From the NCBI GenBank assembly GCA_947456055.1, contig CANGSR010000005.1, forward strand, positions 1-41,891: DNA of 41,891 bases, given 5' to 3'. The DNA comes from Chitinophagaceae bacterium (lineage in GTDB: Bacteria > Bacteroidota > Bacteroidia > Chitinophagales > Chitinophagaceae). Made by a program: the position numbers and the translations under genes. This document shows positions 2,735 through 36,234 of this stretch, one piece after another (within the stretch, counting starts at the first letter, position 1; each line of letters begins with the position of its first letter). Under the pieces are notes generated by a model. That model did not search any database, was not told where the DNA came from, and was given only the letters and a program-made list of their open reading frames with translations.

Positions 2735-3613
2735 CTAATTCCTCTTATCTATCCCCCAATACAATTTCTGCCTCAGGGTCTTCAGGAAATTATGCTCGTC
2801 TGGCCTTACCAGCGACACCTGGAAACTTTCACGCTTCACGGCAAGCTGCACATTGTTTTTAATAATTTCGGTACGGGCATCGAGGGTACATAAAAACGAT
2901 TCACTCCGGCCCTCAATCTCAAAGGAGATAACATTATTATCAGGTACTACTATTGGTCGGGTATTCAGGTTGTGGGGAGCAACCGGGGTTATTACAAAGC
3001 TTGATGTTTGTGGAAAAACAACCGGGCCACCACAACTTAATGAATAACCCGTAGAACCTGTAGGAGTAGAAACGATCAACCCGTCGGCCCAATAAGTATT
3101 CAGGAATTCCCCATTAAGGTAGGTATGTATTTTAATCATTGATGAGGTGTCCTGCCTGTGGATAGTAAACTCATTCAATGCAAACGGTGCACCATCAAAC
3201 AATGGTACACTTGAGTCAAGATGTACCAGCGATCTTTTCTCAAGGGTATAACTACCCCTCACCAGCGATAATATTGCTCCCTCCACTTCTTCCTCGGGTA
3301 TAGCAGCCAAAAAACCCAATCTGCCCAGGTTAACACCTATCAGCGGTATATTAGAATTGCCCACGAAGCACACCGCATCCAGCATGGTTCCATCTCCACC
3401 CAGGGTGAAAAACATATCGGTATGTGGTGGCAGGTCTTTCTTACCTGTAAACACCTTTGGTGGGGTAGGGAATGCTACATAGGGGCAAAGCCGCTCATAG
3501 AATTCTTTATAAAAAACAAGGTTCAGTTTATGTTGGTCAAGTAATTTAAGAATATGCAGGATGATTGGTACATCCTGTACATCAAAAGTCCGGTTATAAA
3601 GTGCGATTAGCAT
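2735..3613 (-). CDS. nadK: NAD kinase
   Basis: Cytoplasmic enzyme that phosphorylates the 2'-hydroxyl of NAD to make NADP. The 292-residue protein has the family's GGDGT motif at 72-76 (LGGDGTMLDA), the NEF segment (ALNEFTIHR) and the TPTGSTGYSLSCGGP signature. The ATG is followed by a normal NADK N-terminus (MLIALYNR). The start codon is preceded at five bases by a 35-nt tract of exact heptanucleotide units (3618-3652), with a further such tract upstream. I see no good -7 element inside that leader. Confidence 0.96.
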   Translation of the reverse strand: MLIALYNRTFDVQDVPIILHILKLLDQHKLNLVFYKEFYERLCPYVAFPTPPKVFTGKKDLPPHTDMFFTLGGDGTMLDAVCFVGNSNIPLIGVNLGRLGFLAAIPEEEVEGAILSLVRGSYTLEKRSLVHLDSSVPLFDGAPFALNEFTIHRQDTSSMIKIHTYLNGEFLNTYWADGLIVSTPTGSTGYSLSCGGPVVFPQTSSFVITPVAPHNLNTRPIVVPDNNVISFEIEGRSESFLCTLDARTEIIKNNVQLAVKRESFQVSLVRPDEHNFLKTLRQKLYWGIDKRN

Positions 3614-3617
3614 TTTT

Positions 3618-3717
3618 TATGAAGTATAAAGTCGAAAGTATAAAGTCGAAAGACGAAGCTCAGTAAAACAGTGCTAAGTGCTTTAATAGCCAAAAGTAAA
3701 TAGTATTTGGTAGATAG
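3618..3717 (-). repeat. Heptanucleotide satellite in the nadK leader
   Basis: Read on the minus strand toward nadK, 3652-3618 is five consecutive 7-nt units of the form CTTTNNA or CTTCATA, ending five bases before the ATG. A second block at 3717-3690 is four 7-nt units (CTATCTA, CCAAATA, CTATTTA, CTTTTGG). The register is exact within each block. Related tracts lie at 6026-6053, 7237-7306 and 28349-28475. Confidence 0.8.
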
Positions 3718-3774
3718 CTATGGGTTTTAGTGGAAAGGATAAATTATTATAATAAAAATAATATTCGAACAGGG

Positions 3775-5181
3775 TTATTCACTATTGAAATGGATGAATA
3801 GCCCTGTTTGACCCAGGTCGTTTTGGGTCATTTCAAGTCGCAATTTCACGTCGTAGAAGGTAACAATGTCTATACCTGCACCATAACTATACATCAATCT
3901 GTTCCCTGTAGTAGTATGCCAGCGTGCAGGATTGTTGATATAGCCAGCATCCGCAAATACCTTTGGGTAGATATGCAATGGCATAGCCGTAAAATACTTT
4001 ATTGGGAAATGCCAGGTAGTTTTGAATATTTCCCGTTTCAAGTCCAGGCGCAAAAGACCGTAATGGTCGCCATCTGTAACATAATATTCATACCCCCTCA
4101 CGTAGTCGGTATTAGTACCGAGTCCCCCCCTGAAGAAGTAGGGGATATTGGCAGACGATAACCTACCCCTGAAAACCACTGAGCTATATAATTTATTAGT
4201 GATTTTATTAAAGATTCCAGCCTCCAATTGTTCATAAAACTGCGATTGGATACCTATTAATCCCATCCTTGCTACTGCATTGGATACTACCTTAACACCC
4301 TTTAATGAATAGCTCCAGTTATCTACCCCATTGTATTCAAACCGGTAGGATAATTCTAATAGTTGCGCATTAGTGCTTGCCTTGCTAAAGAAGTCATTAT
4401 TCAGTTTCACCACGGTATCACCCACATGGTAATCCCGATACATAGCCTGTACTATATGCCTCGACTTATAGGCTGGTCGGTACAGATAACTGATTCCGGC
4501 ATCTAATTGCCTAAAGATTACCGGACCTGTATAAACACCCACATAAACCAGTCTGTCTGAATCGGTATTGAAATAGGTTTGCCTGCTTTGGGTAATACTT
4601 GCCGACAGACCAAGCCCGCTGGTTTGGTTATTATTCACATAGGGGCGGGTATAGTTGATGCCTAGCTTCTGGGTATAGCCAGCCTCTAGAGTTACAGCCA
4701 GGGTCTCAAGGTTGCCCCTGAAATTTTTATCGGTCAATGTAAAACCAGCACTAGCCCGCCTCAGATCATGGTTTTGTTTTACCCACCATGTATTAAGGTT
4801 TCTATCGGCAAACTGAAGGATGGCAGTAGGTATATAATACCACCGCTCCTTTAGCTCTATATGCCAGATAATATCATTATCCCTGCGCTCCACATGCTGA
4901 ATAACCTCATTAAAAAGTTGAAGATTCAGTAATCGTAGTTTATTGGCCTCTTTTATAAAATCTGTTGAGTCGAAGGCTACTTTATCTCCCTCGTGTATAG
5001 TCAATTCCCTAAGTATCACACTGGTACGGGTCACTTTGTTACCCTCAATCACTATTCTTAACACATTTACCAGGGGGCTTAAATCCTGGCTTTGGTAATA
5101 CTTAGATGGCAGACGCCTGGTAGTTTGTCCCATGGCATCTGTACAACAAATAAGTAGCAATAATAAATAGAAATACCTCAT
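3775..5181 (-). CDS. BamA/TamA-like (Omp85 superfamily) outer-membrane protein
   Basis: Predicted outer-membrane beta barrel with one periplasmic POTRA domain. The start at 5181 gives a clear Sec signal (MRYFYLLLLLICCTDAMGQ) and 468 residues; the 32 upstream in-frame codons do not look like a signal and are left out. Roughly residues 35-105 form one POTRA (LRIVIEGNKVTRTSVILREL ... KLRLLNLQLFNEV ... IIWHIELKERWYY). The remainder alternates polar and aromatic residues as in a barrel. RGYEYY, beginning at residue 362, matches the (V/I)RG[FY] motif of the Omp85 plug loop. BamA itself has five POTRAs, so this is a short paralogue of unknown substrate rather than the essential insertase. It stands alone on this strand. 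Confidence 0.82.
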   Translation of the reverse strand: MRYFYLLLLLICCTDAMGQTTRRLPSKYYQSQDLSPLVNVLRIVIEGNKVTRTSVILRELTIHEGDKVAFDSTDFIKEANKLRLLNLQLFNEVIQHVERRDNDIIWHIELKERWYYIPTAILQFADRNLNTWWVKQNHDLRRASAGFTLTDKNFRGNLETLAVTLEAGYTQKLGINYTRPYVNNNQTSGLGLSASITQSRQTYFNTDSDRLVYVGVYTGPVIFRQLDAGISYLYRPAYKSRHIVQAMYRDYHVGDTVVKLNNDFFSKASTNAQLLELSYRFEYNGVDNWSYSLKGVKVVSNAVARMGLIGIQSQFYEQLEAGIFNKITNKLYSSVVFRGRLSSANIPYFFRGGLGTNTDYVRGYEYYVTDGDHYGLLRLDLKREIFKTTWHFPIKYFTAMPLHIYPKVFADAGYINNPARWHTTTGNRLMYSYGAGIDIVTFYDVKLRLEMTQNDLGQTGLFIHFNSE

Positions 5182-5308
5182 TACAATTCGGGTCACAATA
5201 TAAAGTGTTTGTGACTGAATGTACCATTCCAGTGGGGTTTTATATGGCATACTGTATACATTAACTATATTCCCCACTTCCTTTTTGCCTGGATTAAGGC
5301 TTAAAATA

Positions 5309-5368
5309 AGTAGCCCCGGCCTTTAGGCTGGAGAATATAATTAATTTTAATTTGGCTTTAGCCGAAAT
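5309..5368 (+). repeat. CCCCGGCC palindrome repeat, copy 1 (decayed)
   Basis: This 60-bp element starts agtagccccggcctttaggc and ends with GGCTTTAGCC. It matches the element at 6245-6305 at both ends. Here the first hairpin has two substitutions on its right arm, so the palindrome is imperfect. Confidence 0.75.
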
Positions 5369-5417
5369 CAACGTGATTGTGGAAATGGGGTATAGATATA
5401 TTTGATTATCCCACTGC

Positions 5418-5978
5418 TTATTTCACCCTTGCCCTCCATGGTATCTCGTCAGCCTTATTAATATGGCTAATATACCTGCACAATACAAACAGATAATCAG
5501 ACAGGCGATTTAGATAGGGTATAATTAAAGGCTGAACAAATTCCCCTGTTTCATGCATGGCTACACACAAGCGCTCGGCCCTGCGGCACACACAACGGGC
5601 CACATGGCAGGTAGAAGATGCAATATTGCCTCCCGGCAATATGAAAGACCGCATTTCGGGCAGATGTTCATTCATCTCATCTATGCGCTCTTCAAGCCAG
5701 GTAATATCGGTATCATGTAGGTCGGGCAATTTCATTTTTACATCCTTACCAGGGTCTGTAGCCAGTTCCGAACCTATGGTAAACAGCCTGTCCTGAATTT
5801 CTCGTAGTTGATTGCTTATTTCTTCATTTTTAGCCAGGTCATTCACCATGCCTATATAGGAGTTAAGCTCATCTACAGTGCCATAACTCTCAATCCTGAT
5901 ATGGTTTTTATATACCCTTAGTCCACCTATAAGGCTGGTACTACCTGTATCTCCGGTTTTTGTATATATTTTGAACAT
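5418..5978 (-). CDS. pduO: ATP:cob(I)alamin adenosyltransferase, PduO type
   Basis: Transfers the adenosyl group of ATP to cob(I)alamin, making coenzyme B12. The 186-residue protein matches the family from the N-terminal MFKIYTKTGDTGSTSLIGG ATP-binding loop, through YGTVDELNSYIG and FILPGGN, to the RCVCRRAER helix and the C-terminal LNRLSDYLFVLCRY motif. No cobalamin synthesis or B12-dependent enzyme gene adjoins it, so it probably serves salvage or a mutase encoded elsewhere. The ATG lies just downstream of an AT-rich leader containing heptanucleotide units (6026-6053). Confidence 0.94.
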   Translation of the reverse strand: MFKIYTKTGDTGSTSLIGGLRVYKNHIRIESYGTVDELNSYIGMVNDLAKNEEISNQLREIQDRLFTIGSELATDPGKDVKMKLPDLHDTDITWLEERIDEMNEHLPEMRSFILPGGNIASSTCHVARCVCRRAERLCVAMHETGEFVQPLIIPYLNRLSDYLFVLCRYISHINKADEIPWRARVK

Positions 5979-6025
5979 TTTTTAAAGTCAAAAGTTAAAA
6001 AGTAAAAGTTAAAACAGCATTTTAG

Positions 6026-6053
6026 TCGAAAGTAGAAAGTATAAAGTAGAAAG
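6026..6053 (-). repeat. Heptanucleotide satellite in the pduO leader
   Basis: Read on the minus strand it is four consecutive 7-nt units: CTTTCTA, CTTTATA, CTTTCTA, CTTTCGA. It is followed toward the gene by less regular 6-8-nt units of the same composition (CTTTTA, CTTTTTAA, CTTTTGA) that end at the pduO ATG at 5978. Confidence 0.75.
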
Positions 6054-6244
6054 ACGAAATTGGAAAATAGATAATCATGATAGATTTAGTGAAAACAATA
6101 TTCAGGTCACAAGTATTATGTAAAACAGATGCATTTGAAAATGAAAAATTGAGATAGGAGAAGTTGATAGTAAAACAGTTTTCTAAACGAATGTAAATGT
6201 ATTAGTTGTCGTAAACCAATGATTGTTTGTCAATACTTGCTATG

Positions 6245-6305
6245 AGTAGCCCCGGCCTTTAGGCCGGGGAAAAGGACTAAATTTAAATTGGCTTTAGCCA
6301 AAATT
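6245..6305 (+). repeat. CCCCGGCC palindrome repeat, copy 2 (intact)
   Basis: Contains a perfect palindrome, CCCCGGCCTTTAGGCCGGGG, at 6250-6269, followed by an AT-rich interior and a small GGC-ttta-GCC hairpin. It matches 5309-5368 in order and spacing to within one base. It sits in the 414-bp gene-free spacer 5979-6392, which otherwise holds the pduO leader satellite and no credible gene. Confidence 0.8.
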
Positions 6306-6392
6306 CTCGCACAAATGGTTCAAAATCAACACAGGCAAACGCTTAATCGATTCAAAAAAGCTCATTCCACAATACTTATCTACCTATCTTTA

Positions 6393-7100
6393 TTAATGGC
6401 TATTTGCAAGCATCGGATTTTGATTAGTATCGGTTTCCACATGTCCATCCCTTATCCTTATCACCCTGTGTGTATACCGGGCAATATCCTCTTCATGGGT
6501 CACCAAAACTACAGTATTGCCCTGCTCATGAATCTTGCCAAACAATTCCATTATTTCAATAGAGGTCTTACTGTCAAGGTTTCCGGTAGGTTCATCGGCA
6601 AGCAATAGGGATGGATTATTAATCAATGCCCTAGCCACGGCCACACGCTGGCTTTGTCCACCCGAAAGCTCATTGGGTTTGTGATGGGCACGGTCGCCAA
6701 GGCCCACTTTTTGCAGCATAGCCATGGCTCTTTCTTCCCTTTCCTTTTTGCCCGCACCTGCATATATGAGGGGTAGTGCCACATTTTCCCAGGCAGTTAA
6801 CCTTGGTAACAGATTGAATTGCTGGAAAACAAAGCCAATCTCCACATTTCTTACATCAGCAAGCTGGTCATCGGCCATATTACTTACATTCTTACCGTTA
6901 AGAACATAGGTGCCACCTGTTGGCGAGTCAAGGCAGCCCAGAATATTCATCAGGGTTGATTTTCCCGACCCTGAAGGCCCCATAAGCGCCACATATTCAT
7001 TACTGCTGATGAGCAGATTAATGCCCTTAAGAACAGGCAGTTCCTGCTTACCCAGATAATAACTTTTGCGGATGTCGTTCAGCCTGATAACTTCTTTCAT
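6393..7100 (-). CDS. ABC transporter ATP-binding protein, LolD/MacB family
   Basis: Cytoplasmic ATPase of a type VII (mechanotransmission) ABC system; relatives power lipoprotein release (LolCDE) or efflux (MacAB). With the start at 7100 it has 235 residues, normal for LolD/MacB ATPases; the 19 extra upstream codons lack homology. Visible motifs are Walker [10 protein letters not shown] at 41-49, Q-loop [12 protein letters not shown] around 90-101, signature LSGGQ at 145-149, Walker B LLLADE at 165-170 with the family-typical PTGNLDS, and the switch His202. No permease gene is adjacent, so the partner must be elsewhere and the substrate cannot be assigned. Confidence 0.9.
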
Positions 7101-7236
7101 GTTGCTGCTATGCGATTTCAAAAATACACTTAATTTCAAGTCAAAAGACAAACTCATCTAAACTTTTGAAATTGGTGAGGAATTGGAATACAAAACTCCA
7201 TGTTCCATATAAGCCTAAGCTCTATCCAAAACCTGT

Positions 7237-7306
7237 CTTTCTACTTTTGTCTTTCTACTTTCTACTAACTACTTTTGTCTTTCTACTTTCTACTAAATAC
7301 TTTCTA
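7237..7306 (+). repeat. Ten-unit heptanucleotide satellite in the ispE leader
   Basis: Ten 7-nt units in unbroken register: CTTTCTA six times, CTTTTGT twice, plus CTAACTA and CTAAATA. The tract includes a near-duplicate 28-nt block. It ends eight bases before the ispE ATG at 7315. The plus strand here is almost free of G. Confidence 0.85.
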
Positions 7307-7314
7307 CTGAAAAA

Positions 7315-8127
7315 ATGGTCTCCTTCCCCAATTGCAAAATAAATCTAGGTCTCTACATCACCCGTAAACGTAATGATGGGTATCACGACCTTGAAACCGT
7401 ATTTTATCCTGTAGGATTAAAAGATGCACTAGAGGTAGTTCCTGCCCAGGTCACAACCTTGTACATGAGCGGACTGGAAGTAGCTGGTAACCAGGCAGAT
7501 AATTTGGTACTTAAAGCATGGCAATTATTGCACGACTTGTTCCCTGCCAAAGTACCTACTCTGGATATTTACTTGCACAAGGCTATCCCTATGGGTGCGG
7601 GAATGGGTGGTGGGTCGGCAGATGGGGCATTTATGCTGCGCTTGCTCAATGAGTATTGCCAACTAGGTCTTTCTGCTAACGAATTGATTCCTTTGGCTTT
7701 AAAATTGGGTAGCGATTGCCCATTTTTCATTTTGAATGCACCCCAGTTTGCCACTGGCCGTGGCGAACAAATGTCACCGGTAGAAATCTCTTTATCAGCT
7801 TATAGTCTTCAATTGGTTTGCCCAAAAGTACATGTATCCACAGGCAAGGCATTTGGATTAATCACACCCCGCCCTGCACCCTATAATTTGAGGCAAATTC
7901 TATCCCTACCTATAGATCAATGGAAAGATACAATTTCGAATGATTTTGAGGCTCCGGTTTTCGGCCAGCATCCTGCTTTGGCAGCAATCAAATCGCAGCT
8001 TTATGCACAGGGAGCTATCTATGCATCTATGAGTGGCAGCGGTAGTACCCTTTTTGGTATTTTTCCTAAAGGAGTAATGGCTGAAATAACTTCTACACTA
8101 GAATTTGAAACCAAATATATCCGATAA
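7315..8127 (+). CDS. ispE: 4-diphosphocytidyl-2-C-methyl-D-erythritol kinase
   Basis: GHMP-family kinase that phosphorylates CDP-methylerythritol in the MEP isoprenoid pathway. The 270 residues are slightly short of the E. coli enzyme but complete. Lys8 lies in the start segment FPNCKINLGLYI, the glycine-rich ATP loop is PMGAGMGGGSADG at 93-104, and Asp134 lies in KLGSDCPFF. A C-terminal MSGSGSTLFGIF motif is also typical. The start codon follows the ten-unit heptanucleotide tract directly. It is transcribed divergently from the ABC ATPase. dxs of the same pathway lies 17 kb away. Confidence 0.96.
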   Translation: MVSFPNCKINLGLYITRKRNDGYHDLETVFYPVGLKDALEVVPAQVTTLYMSGLEVAGNQADNLVLKAWQLLHDLFPAKVPTLDIYLHKAIPMGAGMGGGSADGAFMLRLLNEYCQLGLSANELIPLALKLGSDCPFFILNAPQFATGRGEQMSPVEISLSAYSLQLVCPKVHVSTGKAFGLITPRPAPYNLRQILSLPIDQWKDTISNDFEAPVFGQHPALAAIKSQLYAQGAIYASMSGSGSTLFGIFPKGVMAEITSTLEFETKYIR

Positions 8128-10155: not shown

Positions 10156-12690
10156 TTATCTCTTTACCAATAATGCCCCTGTAAAAATATCATGTTCACC
10201 CTCTGATAGTTTTAAGGCATTCAGCTTCACCACGTAATAATAAGTGCCATCAGGCACAGACTCACCATTGCTTTGCCTTCCAAACCAGTCATTATTATAG
10301 TTGCTTTTCTGATAAAGGGAATTACCCCATTTGTCAAATACTTGCACACTATTTTTAGGGAATTTATCTATGCCTTCCACCACCCATGTATCATTTATCC
10401 CATCACCATTGGGGGTTATAGCATCATGCACTATTATACCACATGCCTCAGTCCTTACCCTGAAAGTATCAGTAGCCACGCATACAGAAAAGGTTCTTAC
10501 TACAAAGTAGGTGCCGGCATTAGTTACCGCTTGTTCATTGCCGGTGTTTCCTGTATTCCAGGTATATTGCCAGGCATTGGGCGAATGTACTTGTAGTTTT
10601 ATTTGAGTAAACTCTTCAACACAGGCCATGGTATCAGCAGGTGATATCGTAGCAACAGGAATAATTACTGATAAGCTATCCCTAAAAGTACAACCATATT
10701 GAGATGCTATAAAGGAATAGACACCTGATTGCGCCACTAAAAACGTATTGGCAGTTGAACTATCCTGCCAGATATAACTTACCCCATTATTGGGCAAGTA
10801 ATAGTAAAATGCAGCACAGGCAACAGTATCAGGTGCCAGAGAAAAATGCAGGTTCTTTGATCCATCCTTTATCTTGAAACTGTCTATATGTACCAATGCA
10901 TCACATCCCTTCCCTGATTTACACAGCACCCAGTAAATGCCGGTATCGCCTATAGGTAATACTGTATCAGTATTTGATGTATTCCAATAATAATTGGTAA
11001 AGCCGGTACTCGATTGTAATAAAAGGCTTGAATTGGTGCAAAGAAAAGAATCAGATAGCATTGATGATGAATCGGATGGAGGGTTATTAATCACCTTGAA
11101 AGTATCAGCCAGATAAATGCAAAGGCCATGGCCGACTACAATATCTGTGCCTGCATTGTGCACCATTAGGCGATCACTGGTAGCCCCTGTATTCCAAAGG
11201 TAGGTGTCGAAACCTGATGGAGCCTTAAGTAATAAACTATCTCCTAGGCAAACCACCTGATGCAGGTCCATTGTGTCAATACCCAACTTATGCCTGTATT
11301 TGGCAATAAATACATTTTCATAGGTTGGTATTAAAGAGTCGCCACAAGGCAGGTAAACCGGGGCAGCAACATCTCCACAAAGAAAAATATTCCCTTTATA
11401 ATCGCAGACCATATCGCAAAAATCATCCCCGCCGGATGCGATGCTTGTGGCCTCAATTAGATGCCCCGCCGAAGTGTAACCTATTAGAAACAGGTTGTCA
11501 GCATGTATTGAATCCATAACCAGATGGTAGCTATCCAGGAAAAGGTCGCCACTATGAAAGCCATTTACCCACACATTATTACAAGGGTCGGTGGTAATAC
11601 CAAATGCCATCACATTGCTATCGCTCATTATGTTTTTAAGCCATGCTACCTTACCACTACTATCTAATTTTAGTAAAAAGCCACCTACAAATGCACCAAT
11701 TGGGCAGTAAGCTGTATCATTACCAAAAGCCAATACACCAAGAATTCCAGATATATAGATACTCCCTGCATTATCAGCTGCGCAGTGTTGTACCGAAACA
11801 CTAAAAGATACATCACTATGCCTTACCCATATCTCATGCCCGTCCAGGTCGAAACGGGCAATAAAAGTATGTAAGTCACCCGAAGCGGCATCACTACCAT
11901 CTATCACATCCCCTCCATTAAAACTAAGGTTAGATGATTTGGTTTCACCTGTTAGGTAAATATGTTTATCTGGTGTTATCGAAAGCCCCATAGCTAAATC
12001 CTTGTCGCTACCAGAAATTCCCTGCGCCCAAATGACATTACCCAATGTGTCGAATTTGGCTAGAAAAATATCAGTGCCCCCAAGATTATTTAAATGAAAT
12101 GTACCAATAGTGGGATTGTTATTATAGTTGCAGGTTATGTATACGCTTCCCTTATTATCAATGGCCATTGCGCCAAGATTGTTATAGTATATGTAATGAC
12201 CAAAATTGGTCTGTAAAAAATCTCGTCTCATTTTTACATCGCCAACATTAGTAGCCCATAGGAAATGGCCATCGGGAGCAAACTTAGCCAGGAAATACTG
12301 AGAAAGAGTATCGGGCACCCCTGTATTTTCCAGTAGGGTATCACCGATTCCAACAGCGTAGTTATCATTCAATGCCAGGATATACACATTGCCCCATGGG
12401 TCTGTGGCAATACTTATGGGGGCAGCGGTACTAGCTCCAGTACCCCATAAATAATTGCCTAGCGAGTCGTATTTAATCAGAAACATTTCAGCAAGCAGAG
12501 TATCCATGCCAAATACCATGGTGTCATTGGCAAACGTATACCCTGCCCCGTAAACATTGCCCCATTTATCTGTTGCCGCACATAGCCCCTCACTAATACC
12601 ATGTCTATCACTTCGCCCCCATTCCCATCCCTGAGCAAGGGTAGGTAACACAATAAAAATAGTTATGATGATAAATAGTACTTTTTTCAT
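10156..12690 (-). CDS. Secreted propeller protein with gliding-motility-type C-terminal domain
   Basis: An 844-residue exported protein. It has an N-terminal Sec signal (MKKVLFIIITIFIVLPTLAQ). Residues about 20-470 carry repeated SBBP-like propeller blades of the form 'DKWGNVYGAGYT..., FLIKYDSLGNYLWG', i.e. motifs naming a local segment followed by an FxAKFD/LGNxxWA strand. Residues about 480-750 are several Ig-like/PKD-type strands, each with LWNTGAT- or YYWNTSNT-like motifs. The last 90 residues match the gliding-motility-associated C-terminal domain (CHU_C): AITPNGDGINDTWVVEG, VQVFDKWGNSLYQ, PDGTYYYVVKL. That domain directs export by the type IX system and surface attachment. The biological target is unknown. 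Confidence 0.88.
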   Translation of the reverse strand: MKKVLFIIITIFIVLPTLAQGWEWGRSDRHGISEGLCAATDKWGNVYGAGYTFANDTMVFGMDTLLAEMFLIKYDSLGNYLWGTGASTAAPISIATDPWGNVYILALNDNYAVGIGDTLLENTGVPDTLSQYFLAKFAPDGHFLWATNVGDVKMRRDFLQTNFGHYIYYNNLGAMAIDNKGSVYITCNYNNNPTIGTFHLNNLGGTDIFLAKFDTLGNVIWAQGISGSDKDLAMGLSITPDKHIYLTGETKSSNLSFNGGDVIDGSDAASGDLHTFIARFDLDGHEIWVRHSDVSFSVSVQHCAADNAGSIYISGILGVLAFGNDTAYCPIGAFVGGFLLKLDSSGKVAWLKNIMSDSNVMAFGITTDPCNNVWVNGFHSGDLFLDSYHLVMDSIHADNLFLIGYTSAGHLIEATSIASGGDDFCDMVCDYKGNIFLCGDVAAPVYLPCGDSLIPTYENVFIAKYRHKLGIDTMDLHQVVCLGDSLLLKAPSGFDTYLWNTGATSDRLMVHNAGTDIVVGHGLCIYLADTFKVINNPPSDSSSMLSDSFLCTNSSLLLQSSTGFTNYYWNTSNTDTVLPIGDTGIYWVLCKSGKGCDALVHIDSFKIKDGSKNLHFSLAPDTVACAAFYYYLPNNGVSYIWQDSSTANTFLVAQSGVYSFIASQYGCTFRDSLSVIIPVATISPADTMACVEEFTQIKLQVHSPNAWQYTWNTGNTGNEQAVTNAGTYFVVRTFSVCVATDTFRVRTEACGIIVHDAITPNGDGINDTWVVEGIDKFPKNSVQVFDKWGNSLYQKSNYNNDWFGRQSNGESVPDGTYYYVVKLNALKLSEGEHDIFTGALLVKR

Positions 12691-28348: not shown

Positions 28349-28475
28349 CTATTTACTATCTAATAAGTACTAAATCCAAAATCCGTCTAACTACTATTTA
28401 CTATCTACAAAGTACTAAATCCCCAAATCTGTCTTTCTACTTTATACTCTCTACTTTCTACTGATTAACTTTCTA
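28349..28475 (+). repeat. Heptanucleotide satellite between convergent genes
   Basis: Two near-copies of a 28-nt block (28349-28376 and 28394-28421), each four 7-nt units (CTATTTA, CTATCTA, nnAAGTA, CTAAATC), are followed by CTTTCTA-type units at 28433-28460 and 28469-28475. The last unit contains the stop codon of the L,D-transpeptidase gene. The same heptamers occur at 3618-3717 and 7237-7306. Confidence 0.8.
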
Positions 28476-29213
28476 CTTGCGAATAAAAACCCTCGTGCCC
28501 ACACCTATCAGTGTATATAAATCATCTACGTCCTTGTTTTTGATGGCTACACAACCATCTGTCCAGTTTACGCCCATATCAATCATATCATCACCACCTT
28601 TCCATATACCGTGAATACCCACATCGCCGCCCATTTGGGCAGTTTTAGGAATTTTACCCGTTTCTTTCAGTTTGTTGAACCGGGCAATAGATGAATCATT
28701 AGGATAATTTAGCAGCATGAACTTGTTGTACTTTGAGGATGGATTCTTAGTTTTTATGGTAAACCATCCTTCGGGGGTACACCGGTCGCCGGCTACACAC
28801 TTATTCTCCTGCGGTTTTGGCCCGAAAACAGCCTTATAGGAGCGGATAATTTTACGTCGGTAATAAACCTCAAGCCTAAATTGCGATTTGTTGACCATAA
28901 CCAATACCGAATCCTTATTCATAGTATCGGGGTTAATGGGTACCCTGATACTCACATTACCCGGCATTTTTTGTATTTCAGTTACTTTTTTGCCATTCAG
29001 GGTATATTGTATTGTGCGTATTAGATTTCCATTCTTGTCCTTGGTCTCACTTATTACTTTTACGTTTTGGGGTACTGGGGTAGGTGCGATATCCTTATAG
29101 GTCTTTTGTAGAACTCTTGATTGCCCCCAACTATTAACAACTGATATTATCATACACAACAACATAAAGTACCTGAGTAGTGCAGATAATGTATACCTAT
29201 GGTGTTTTGTCAT
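28473..29213 (-). CDS. L,D-transpeptidase (YkuD domain)
   Basis: Periplasmic enzyme that forms 3-3 cross-links in peptidoglycan or attaches proteins to it. The 246 residues begin with a signal segment (about residues 8-30, ending NSWGQS). The YkuD domain spans roughly 105-246. It includes VMVNKSQFRLEVYYRRK, the HG of the catalytic loop (IHGIWKGG, His201) and the nucleophile Cys221 in NWTDGCVAIKN. The stop codon overlaps a heptanucleotide unit. dapD, which supplies the diaminopimelate precursor, is in the same window. Confidence 0.94.
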   Translation of the reverse strand: MTKHHRYTLSALLRYFMLLCMIISVVNSWGQSRVLQKTYKDIAPTPVPQNVKVISETKDKNGNLIRTIQYTLNGKKVTEIQKMPGNVSIRVPINPDTMNKDSVLVMVNKSQFRLEVYYRRKIIRSYKAVFGPKPQENKCVAGDRCTPEGWFTIKTKNPSSKYNKFMLLNYPNDSSIARFNKLKETGKIPKTAQMGGDVGIHGIWKGGDDMIDMGVNWTDGCVAIKNKDVDDLYTLIGVGTRVFIRK

Positions 29214-36060: not shown

Positions 36061-36234
36061 TTCAAAAAAGGAAACTCCAAACCTTAAGAATTCGAATCTT
36101 TATACCCCTAAACATTGCTAATCTCTGAAAATATCGGACTTTTGAATTAATTAAAGACTCAACGTGAATCTAAAGTCAAACTTAAAAATTGCTGGCTTTT
36201 GAATTTTGAATTTTAACTTTTGAATTTATCAAAA

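What the first reader, a model, noticed from the sequence alone, without database searches (positions are those of the whole stretch)
3618..7306. Exact 7-nt-register satellites directly before start codons
Tracts of CTTTCTA-like heptamers lie in the leaders of nadK (3618-3652, 3690-3717), pduO (6026-6053) and ispE (7237-7306, ten units with no register slip), and a sister tract lies between convergent genes at 28349-28475. In all three leaders the pyrimidine-rich strand is the sense strand and the tract is within a few bases of the ATG (at pduO via less regular units). The shared heptamers across distant sites suggest one spreading repeat family. A G-poor unstructured leader could stand in for a Shine-Dalgarno site, and slippage of 7-nt units would change leader length. 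The tract at 28349 does not precede a start codon, so a purely neutral satellite is also possible.
Basis: partly seen in the sequence, partly recalled or inferred. Interest (0 to 1): 0.65.

Follow-up and report, generated by a model that had tools for sequence, protein, structure and literature searches.

The report
Heptamer repeats that face gene edges
Short blocks of a seven-base repeat sit against the edges of genes in this bacterium, nearly always turned the same way relative to the gene whether they touch its start or its end, so they are not simply start-of-gene signals; a similar, still unexplained pattern was published for two unrelated groups of bacteria.

Summary
The tracts are real: 57 reach 24 bits in 842 kb of this genome, against 3 in reversed sequence and 0, 1, 0 in shuffled intergenic DNA. 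The CTTT strand reads 5'->3' into the flanking gene at starts and equally at stops: within 20 nt of a gene edge 30 of 30 (12 starts, 18 stops; 26 of 26 without this window). Over nine same-genus sets, eight not unselected: 53 of 53 at starts, 50 of 54 at stops. The 28433 "exception" obeys, facing a stop codon. Lengths peak at 30-31 nt, about four units. Of 15 tract-bearing regions shared with a sister species, 14 keep one there. G129 and G430 show the polarity with other units; G133 barely. Rehm et al. 2015 (PMC4692102) reported this placement and four-unit preference for G-rich heptamers in Xanthomonas and Nostoc, with quadruplexes in mind. Units here lack G-runs, so quadruplexes cannot be the shared cause. 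I judge it a new variant of a known, unexplained repeat class, shaped at DNA level by a directional process stopped by selection at ORF edges. A Shine-Dalgarno substitute is not supported.

The parts
3622..3657 (-). heptamer tract facing nadK start (8 nt before ATG at 3613)
   Evidence: in sister species G023 a different unit type stands at the same place and orientation
3690..3717 (-). degenerate tract-like stretch upstream of nadK, below threshold
   Evidence: not among tracts of 20 bits or more
5984..6014 (-). TTTTAAC/TTTTGAC-type tract, 5 nt before pduO ATG (5978)
   Evidence: TRF; 23.4 bits over 5984-6000
6024..6073 (-). CTTTCTA-type tract, distal of the former in the pduO leader
   Evidence: conserved in G023
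7237..7308 (+). 72-nt tract facing ispE start (6 nt before ATG at 7315)
   Evidence: one substitution in 72 nt and no unit change in G023
28349..28408 (+). ACTATNN-type units and 'TCCAAAATC' spacers distal of the next tract
   Evidence: period 45; 21.2 bits at 28387-28408
28433..28462 (+). 30-nt tract facing the stop codon of the L,D-transpeptidase gene (28473-29213, -), antisense to that gene
36196..36227 (+).
   Evidence: Pfam
2735..3613 (-). nadK
   Evidence: Pfam NAD_kinase
5418..5978 (-). pduO-type cobalamin adenosyltransferase
   Evidence: Pfam Cob_adeno_trans
7315..8127 (+). ispE-like GHMP kinase
   Evidence: Pfam GHMP_kinases

Best explanation
These tracts belong to a broad class of bacterial heptamer-repeat blocks that sit at ORF edges with a preferred polarity: the pyrimidine-rich strand's 3' end (equally, the purine-rich strand's 5' end) faces the ORF, at the start or at the stop. 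Shown: the units, the 7-nt register, the position, the polarity at both edges, the 30-31 nt length mode in this genome and its sister, inverted pairs within one intergenic region, and persistence in a sister species. Inferred: because the same rule holds at starts and stops, with different units and in different families, and the same gene edge (nadK) carries different unit types in different species, the cause acts at the DNA level and is directional. Blocks arise, are replaced or extend toward one side, and come to rest at the ORF edge because going further would damage the gene. They are tolerated in leaders because translation in this phylum does not use Shine-Dalgarno sites. The enzyme or process that makes the direction is not identified.
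For: Polarity 30 of 30 within 20 nt of an ORF edge in the 842-kb sample (12 starts, 18 stops; 51 of 56 at any distance), 28 of 28 in the sister G023. Leading end within 11 nt of an ORF in 30 of 56 tracts, trailing end never closer than 31 nt; 29 of 56 within 10 nt vs 11.7 expected for random placement in the same gaps. Without any motif: 12 leading vs 0 trailing arrays within 20 nt in the sample. In 80 ispE loci across Bacteroidota, not chosen for tracts, 5 leading (4 starts, 1 stop) vs 0 trailing within 20 nt, 3 further off, 3 without strand bias, 1 coding (one of the five is the ispE tract of a close relative). Other families with other units, stretches chosen for hits: G129 13 leading, 0 trailing; G430 16 leading, 0 trailing. 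The flanked window genes are of unrelated function. nadK leader: 10 of 30 same-genus loci (own and G023 included) have a scoring tract, units differ, the one next to the ATG always sense. Two ORFs end inside a block in L325. Tract-free ORF edges show no matching strand skew. Published same preference in Xanthomonas and Nostoc.
Against: No agent or step of a directional process was observed. Units at the leading end are not more regular than at the trailing end, so no gradient of unit age supports growth at one end. Presence is highly conserved between sisters (14 of 15) and aligned tract columns are more alike (0.864) than the rest of the same intergenic regions (0.783), which could also mean function, although low-complexity alignment inflates it. 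Five of 56 tracts in the main sample point away from the nearer ORF; within 20 nt of stops 4 of 54 do, in G001, G007 and G017 (two of four in G017). G133 gives 3 leading vs 2 trailing. The motif-free version in relatives also has trailing cases: G001 8 leading, 2 trailing; G017 2 and 2 (G023 19 and 0, G007 5 and 0, G009 3 and 0). Some blocks fill a short gap so that both ends touch a gene (L313, L317, L325, L329, L331). The 30-31 nt mode is not seen in G129, G133 or G430.
Confidence: 0.45

Rival explanations
1. Transcription-boundary element: RNA that enters an ORF from outside (sense at the start, antisense at the stop) carries a G-poor, C-containing, unstructured pyrimidine stretch with regular YC spacing, which could load Rho and cut off read-through or antisense transcription.
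For: Explains why start and stop edges are mirror images. Leaders are unstructured. In G000, edges that face a neighbour's transcription are occupied more often: tandem starts 16 of 345 vs divergent starts 2 of 190 (Fisher p 0.04), convergent stops 11 of 152 vs tandem stops 8 of 345 (p 0.02). The resemblance to rut sites is recalled, not tested.
Against: In G430, 11 of the 16 edge blocks are at tandem stops, where no neighbour transcribes inward. It gives no reason to lie within 10 nt of the ORF, and a block in a gene's own leader would also be on that gene's own mRNA. Low counts in divergent gaps may only reflect promoters.
Confidence: 0.25
2. RNA hairpin: the purine block after one ORF pairs with the pyrimidine block before the next, closing the intergenic RNA into a stem.
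For: Blocks at both edges of one intergenic region are commoner than chance: 7 vs 0.66 expected (20-bit cut; 5 at the 24-bit cut). Predicted folds pair the two arms in 5 of 6 regions that hold both orientations (fraction 0.48-0.77; 0 in L046).
Against: Most blocks have no partner at the other edge (22 left, 20 right, 7 both). A hairpin needs complementarity but not a fixed polarity, so it does not explain the main rule.
Confidence: 0.1
3. Translation leader that stands in for a Shine-Dalgarno site.
For: Sense at every start within 20 nt (53 of 53 over nine sets); 5-8 nt gap at the window genes; A-rich run before the ATG in tract genes (A at -1 to -3 0.92, n = 12, vs 0.28-0.38 in all genes).
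Against: As many blocks at stops in mirror orientation; SD-like motifs almost absent genome-wide anyway (12 of 596); an A-run after the leading end is also enriched, more weakly, at blocks away from ORFs (about 0.6 at the first four positions, 56 blocks, vs about 0.33 in intergenic DNA), though not clearly at stop-edge blocks (0.60, 0.40, 0.34, 0.54; 35 blocks); only 18 of 535 start edges have a block.
Confidence: 0.06
4. Unoriented neutral microsatellite produced by slippage.
For: 7-nt indels, unit replacement at nadK, no functional theme among the few genes identified.
Against: Polarity and edge position, length mode.
Confidence: 0.04
5. Break-end tailing: purine heptamers are added outward at broken ends next to genes, telomere-fashion, and the ends are rejoined; selection keeps only breaks outside the ORF.
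For: Would predict mirror polarity at both ORF edges, inverted pairs, nibbled C-termini (L325) and stacking of blocks.
Against: The Ku version fails: no Ku match in tract-rich G000, G023, G017, G009, while G001 and G007 have Ku (G000 and G023 are 83% and 78% complete, G017 and G009 96% and 99%). Inverted pairs have other sequence between them. No telomerase-like enzyme was looked for.
Confidence: 0.07

Closest known systems
GGGAATC / GGGGA(C/T)T heptamer repeats of two Xanthomonas genomes and one Nostoc (Rehm et al. 2015, PMC4692102; abstract, found passages and sections 10, 13, 14, 15, 16 seen)
   Same: Seven-base unit; preference for four units; purine-rich strand preferentially upstream of ORFs on the antisense strand or downstream on the sense strand within 50 bp, including overlaps with stop codons; nearer to the 5' neighbour ORF whatever its direction (mean 28 vs 160 nt, Xanthomonas); inverted pairs in Xanthomonas (70 and 75 cases; only a few in Nostoc); few between divergent ORFs; [quoted passage not shown] no functional theme.
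   Different: Their units are G-rich and fold into G-quadruplexes in vitro; the units of this genome (AAAGTNN, AAATTNN and so on in the purine strand) have no G-runs. Other phyla. They report a preference in distance classes, not the near-total polarity seen here.
TAACTGA direct repeats of Beggiatoaceae, Cyanobacteria and five Bacteroidetes (MacGregor 2015, PMC4679880; abstract and sections 3, 7, 10, 23 seen)
   Same: Seven-base unit, 2-6 copies in BOGUAY, close to start codons in forward orientation (147 of 170 sets toward a start, 12 toward a stop; Table 1); proposed translational role.
   Different: Other unit; start-biased, whereas here stops are used as much as starts.
Heptanucleotide long simple sequence repeats (Mrazek and co-workers; seen only as cited in the two papers above)
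   Same: Heptanucleotides are the commonest 5-11 nt category in most genomes of that study, as cited.
   Different: No orientation rule from that work is mentioned in the passages I saw.
STRR sequences of heterocystous cyanobacteria (recalled; only listed papers that mention the name)
   Same: Tandem heptamers (recalled).
   Different: Not compared here.

Membership tests
ORF-edge heptamer repeats as in Xanthomonas/Nostoc (Rehm 2015) | tandem units of 7 nt, dispersed, intergenic | tested here: met
   lag 7 stands out; 57 tracts in 842 kb, 1 of them counted as coding
ORF-edge heptamer repeats as in Xanthomonas/Nostoc (Rehm 2015) | purine strand reads away from the ORF at both starts and stops, near the edge | tested here: met
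   30 of 30 within 20 nt; leading vs trailing distances
ORF-edge heptamer repeats as in Xanthomonas/Nostoc (Rehm 2015) | preference for four units | tested here: met
   30-31 nt: 20 of 57 (G000), 5 of 18 (more G000), 26 of 52 (G023); not seen in G129, G133, G430
ORF-edge heptamer repeats as in Xanthomonas/Nostoc (Rehm 2015) | inverted pairs within one intergenic region (Xanthomonas) | tested here: met
   7 vs 0.66 expected; 5 at the stricter cut
ORF-edge heptamer repeats as in Xanthomonas/Nostoc (Rehm 2015) | rare between divergent ORFs | tested here: met
   2 of 190 divergent start edges vs 16 of 345 tandem start edges
ORF-edge heptamer repeats as in Xanthomonas/Nostoc (Rehm 2015) | G-runs able to form a G-quadruplex | tested here: not met
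   none of the 25 commonest of 41 unit types in this genome's sample has a run of three C or G; so not a member of the quadruplex-forming family in the strict sense. One other Bacteroidota genome, G290, does have ACTTCCC = GGGAAGT units
TAACTGA repeats (MacGregor 2015) | unit TAACTGA | tested here: not met
   consensus A[C/A]TTT[T/C][T/G]; unit census
TAACTGA repeats (MacGregor 2015) | mostly forward to a start codon | tested here: not met
   12 starts and 18 stops within 20 nt
known structured RNA at these sites | Rfam match | tested here: not met
   0 matches at gathering score in the whole window
Shine-Dalgarno-like leader element | purine-rich complement of the anti-SD before the start | tested here: not met
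   leaders are pyrimidine-rich in sense; SD-like motifs 12 of 596 vs 31 of 596 at a control position
STRR of cyanobacteria | unit sequences and placement | not tested
   not compared

The most novel reading that the evidence does not exclude
One directional DNA process, shared by distant phyla, lays down heptamer blocks, typically of four units, at gene edges with the pyrimidine strand aimed into the ORF. The unit sequence drifts freely by lineage (ACTTTNN, ACTTACG, ACTATNN here; ACTTCNN in G430; CCC-rich complements in Xanthomonas and Nostoc), so what is conserved is the 7-nt period, the block size and the polarity, not the letters. ORF edges would be recognised, directly or through selection, as symmetric 'ends'.
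Probability: 0.25. Interest if true: 0.85.

Novelty: new variant of a known kind. Interest (0 to 1): 0.6.

Why it matters
The Xanthomonas/Nostoc repeats were linked to G-quadruplexes because they are G-rich and come in fours. Here the same edge position, polarity, block size and inverted pairs occur with units that cannot form quadruplexes, so that explanation cannot be general. This turns an old puzzle (why seven bases, why four units, why aimed at genes from both ends) into one testable in culturable Bacteroidota and with public strain collections. It also warns against reading such tracts as translation signals when only the start side has been examined.

Tried and rejected
Rejected: (1) Start-codon function as the general cause: stops are used as much. 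(2) G-quadruplex: no G-runs in the units of this genome. (3) Ku-dependent end joining: no Ku match in several tract-rich genomes. (4) 'Units youngest at the leading end': mean bits per unit are flat (8.33, 8.36, 7.58, 8.54 for the first four units from the leading end). (5) Background strand skew at ORF edges as the source of polarity: tract-free edges show none of comparable size. (6) Known structured RNA: none by Rfam in the window. (7) The tract supplying the stop codon as the general reason for stop-side polarity: fits L325, but CTTCCAA-type blocks at G430 stops (L324, L327) contain no stop codon in the purine strand (my reading of the unit), and it says nothing about starts. (8) Exposure to the neighbour's transcription: trend in G000 but not in G430. 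(9) A promoter-like TAnnTTTG reading of the TTTTGAC units (recalled motif) was considered and not tested.

Led nowhere: literature searches for heptamer repeats in Flavobacterium or Bacteroidota (no papers). Judged by their listings alone, searches added to the two papers used only PMC4060949 (a survey of DNA-structure features in prokaryotes, not opened) and some papers that mention STRR. The protein look-up in named genomes was used for names of relatives and for an 80-locus sample.

Dropped before counts: tracts at contig ends without two flanking genes (4 of 191) and tracts called coding (3 of 191). Correction found on re-checking: one search's counts each include one array made of masked N; without it lag 7 has 10 arrays, lag 14 has 5 and the other lags from 4 to 16 have 0-1.


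Full report
What is there. The window is contig C5 of a 4.97-Mb, 518-contig draft genome. The nearest named relatives of its IspE are uncultured Bacteroidetes and Chitinophagales such as Taibaiella and Flavipsychrobacter, so it is a Bacteroidota genome, probably Chitinophagales (inference). Reading in the pyrimidine-rich strand, the tracts have units A[C/A]TTT[T/C][T/G] (census of 203 units of 41 types: ACTTTTG 37, ACTTTCT 28, ACTTTTA 23, AATTTTT 15 and so on).

Chance. I took the first 20 kb of contigs C1-C4 and C6-C40 and a second 20 kb of C1 (40 stretches), which with the window (C5) makes 841,891 bases. Without any motif, lag 7 gives 13 arrays (at least 23 of 28 matches); lag 3 gives 3, lags 4-13 other than 7 give 0-1 each; lags 14, 21 and 28 give 6, 3 and 4, as multiples of 7. 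A periodic profile finds 57 tracts at 24 bits or more against 3 in reversed sequence and 0, 1, 0 in three shuffles of the intergenic DNA. Loci around ispE from 80 records, nearly all Bacteroidota and not chosen for tracts (504 kb), give 10 lag-7 arrays, 5 at lag 14, and 0-1 at the other lags from 4 to 16 (which removes a masked-N artefact); two of the ten are in a close relative (L186).

The rule. With my own simple gene caller (665 genes, 84% coding; retrained on more sequence) I asked which way each tract points. Call the 3' end of the pyrimidine strand the leading end. Within 20 nt of an ORF edge all 30 tracts lead into the ORF, 12 at starts and 18 at stops; four of these 30 lie in the window, so 26 of 26 elsewhere. 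At any distance 51 of 56 intergenic tracts lead into the nearer ORF. The leading end is within 11 nt of an ORF in 30 of 56; the trailing end is never nearer than 31 nt. In 29 of 56 the nearer ORF is within 10 nt, against a mean of 11.7 (maximum 21 in 2,000 trials) if tracts were placed at random in their gaps. A version with no motif at all, using only lag 7 and pyrimidine content, gives 12 leading and 0 trailing arrays within 20 nt, 8 and 4 further out, 4 without strand bias and 2 coding.

Same genus. In nine sets (two of G000, seven relatives) 184 intergenic tracts gave within 20 nt: starts 53 toward, 0 away; stops 50 toward, 4 away; at any distance starts 96 toward, 4 away, stops 65 toward, 19 away (summed by me). 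All sets but the first were chosen for pattern hits, except that two G023 contigs (C101, C771) were chosen for synteny. The four near-stop exceptions are in G001, G007 and G017 (two). Related loci in G000 and G023 are not independent. The motif-free version in relatives: G023 19 leading, 0 trailing; G001 8 and 2; G007 5 and 0; G009 3 and 0; G017 2 and 2.

Other families. In the 80 ispE loci, which were not chosen for tracts, 5 arrays lead into an ORF within 20 nt (L186, L214, L219, L228 at starts, L243 at a stop), 0 trail, 3 are further off, 3 have no strand bias and 1 is coding. In stretches fetched around hits of ACTTYNN-type repeats, G129 had 13 leading, 0 trailing, 6 in the middle, 1 at a contig edge, 1 coding; G430 16 leading, 0 trailing, 1 in the middle, 2 coding; G133 3 leading, 2 trailing, 3 in the middle. 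'Trailing' means that the trailing end is the nearer one; a few blocks fill the whole gap. In G129 12 of the 13 and in G430 13 of the 16 are at stops, and in several gaps the block begins at the stop codon or the ORF ends inside it (L301, L303, L313, L315, L325, L329). A phylum survey found the four-unit ACTTY pattern in 100 of 392 genomes; the reversed pattern, meant as control, is itself abundant in some genomes, so other heptamers exist there. G290 has GGG-containing units (ACTTCCC).

Block size and stacking. Lengths peak at 30-31 nt: 20 of 57, 5 of 18 and 26 of 52 in G000, further G000 and G023; no such mode in G129, G133, G430. Within blocks of 28-35 nt identity is 0.82 at lag 7, 0.86 at lag 14, 0.89 at lag 21 and 0.44-0.47 off register (G000). 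Two recurrent kinds are CTTTCTA-type and TTTTAAC/TTTTGAC-type; they can stand in series with spacers, for example in the pduO leader and L035, L120, L169, where the TTTT-type is next to the ORF. L121 shows the reverse order. Blocks at both edges of one intergenic region occur 7 times against 0.66 expected (5 times at the stricter cut); both ends of one gene 3 against 0.66.

Evolution. Of 51 syntenic intergenic regions between G000 and its closest relative G023, 14 have tracts in both, 36 in neither, 1 only in G000, 0 only in G023 (the G023 contigs were mostly chosen for hits). The ispE tract differs by one substitution in 72 nt. The nadK tract is CTTTCGA/CTTTATA-type in one and TTTTGAC/TTTTAAC-type in the other, same place, same direction. 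Some changes are indels of 7 nt. Aligned identity: tract 791 of 916, other positions of the same regions 2464 of 3145, tract-free regions 5625 of 6922, gene ends 937 of 1043. Low complexity inflates the tract value. nadK was found in 33 of 35 same-genus genomes; in the 30 loci read, 10 (own and G023 included) score 20 bits or more just upstream of the ATG, with several unit types; at least three more (L356, L360, L362) look similar by eye but fall below the cut-off; the rest lack a clear tract. L219, a Sphingobacteriia record with 51% IspE identity, has its own heptamer tract running up to its ispE start.

What it is not. Leaders are unstructured, but no more than shuffles. SD-like motifs occur at 12 of 596 starts. 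No Rfam family matches in the window. Ku does not track tract abundance.

Known work. Rehm et al. 2015 describe, for G-rich heptamers in two Xanthomonas genomes and one Nostoc, the same edge position, the same preferred polarity at starts and stops, a preference for four units and scarcity between divergent ORFs, with many inverted pairs in Xanthomonas but few in Nostoc, and leave the function open with quadruplexes in mind. MacGregor 2015 describes start-facing TAACTGA repeats, including in five Bacteroidetes. I found no paper that states the two-edge rule for Bacteroidota or for G-poor units in searches of the held library; that library lacks most subscription journals, and only two papers were opened. 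A post hoc lead: purine-strand units here and in Xanthomonas/Nostoc mostly fit RRANT plus two bases (AAAGT, AAATT, GAAGT, GGANT, GGAYT), but ACTATNN and TAACTGA do not.

Mechanism. Shown: letters, register, position, polarity, block size, pairing within gaps, persistence. Inferred: a DNA-level directional process limited by selection at ORF edges. The nearest rival is a transcription-boundary element; the G000 edge rates favour it slightly and the G430 pattern does not.

Noticed in passing
window 5311-5363 and 6247-6299: Two copies of a REP-like pair of palindromes (TAGCCCCGGCCTTTAGGC... and GGCTTTAGCC). CCCCGGCC occurs 19 times in the 842-kb sample vs about 2.2 expected from base composition.
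   Followed up: partly
L053 10789-11029 and 17656-17813: Two dispersed non-tract repeats of about 240 and 160 bp with many copies (roughly 71-88% identity) in G023.
   Followed up: no
L046 about 10940-11030 (query 2940-3030): Another dispersed repeat of about 80 bp with many copies in G023, some as nearby copies on opposite strands.
   Followed up: no
window 7100-7360: The ABC-transporter/ispE intergenic region and the adjoining gene ends look far more alike in G023 (about ten differences by eye) than the longer matches around (85-86%); recent recombination or constraint.
   Followed up: no
genome G228: The reversed pattern (a YTTCA heptamer) hits 156 times on one strand and 0 on the other in a 4.8-Mb genome; possibly one or few long arrays.
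   Followed up: no
L308 5566-5960: Four heptamer blocks in G129 within a higher-order repeat of roughly 130 bp in one intergenic region.
   Followed up: no
L325 5238-7007: Three genes in one 10-kb stretch of G430 are each followed at once by a long block with a different unit (TTAGAAG, TAAGCAG, TTAGCAG); two of the ORFs end inside the block.
   Followed up: partly
sequence after the leading end of blocks in G000 and G023: An A-rich run (AAAAA or GAAAA) follows many blocks, also blocks more than 25 nt from an ORF (A about 0.6 at the first four positions, 56 blocks), less clearly at stop-edge blocks, so it may belong to the block.
   Followed up: partly
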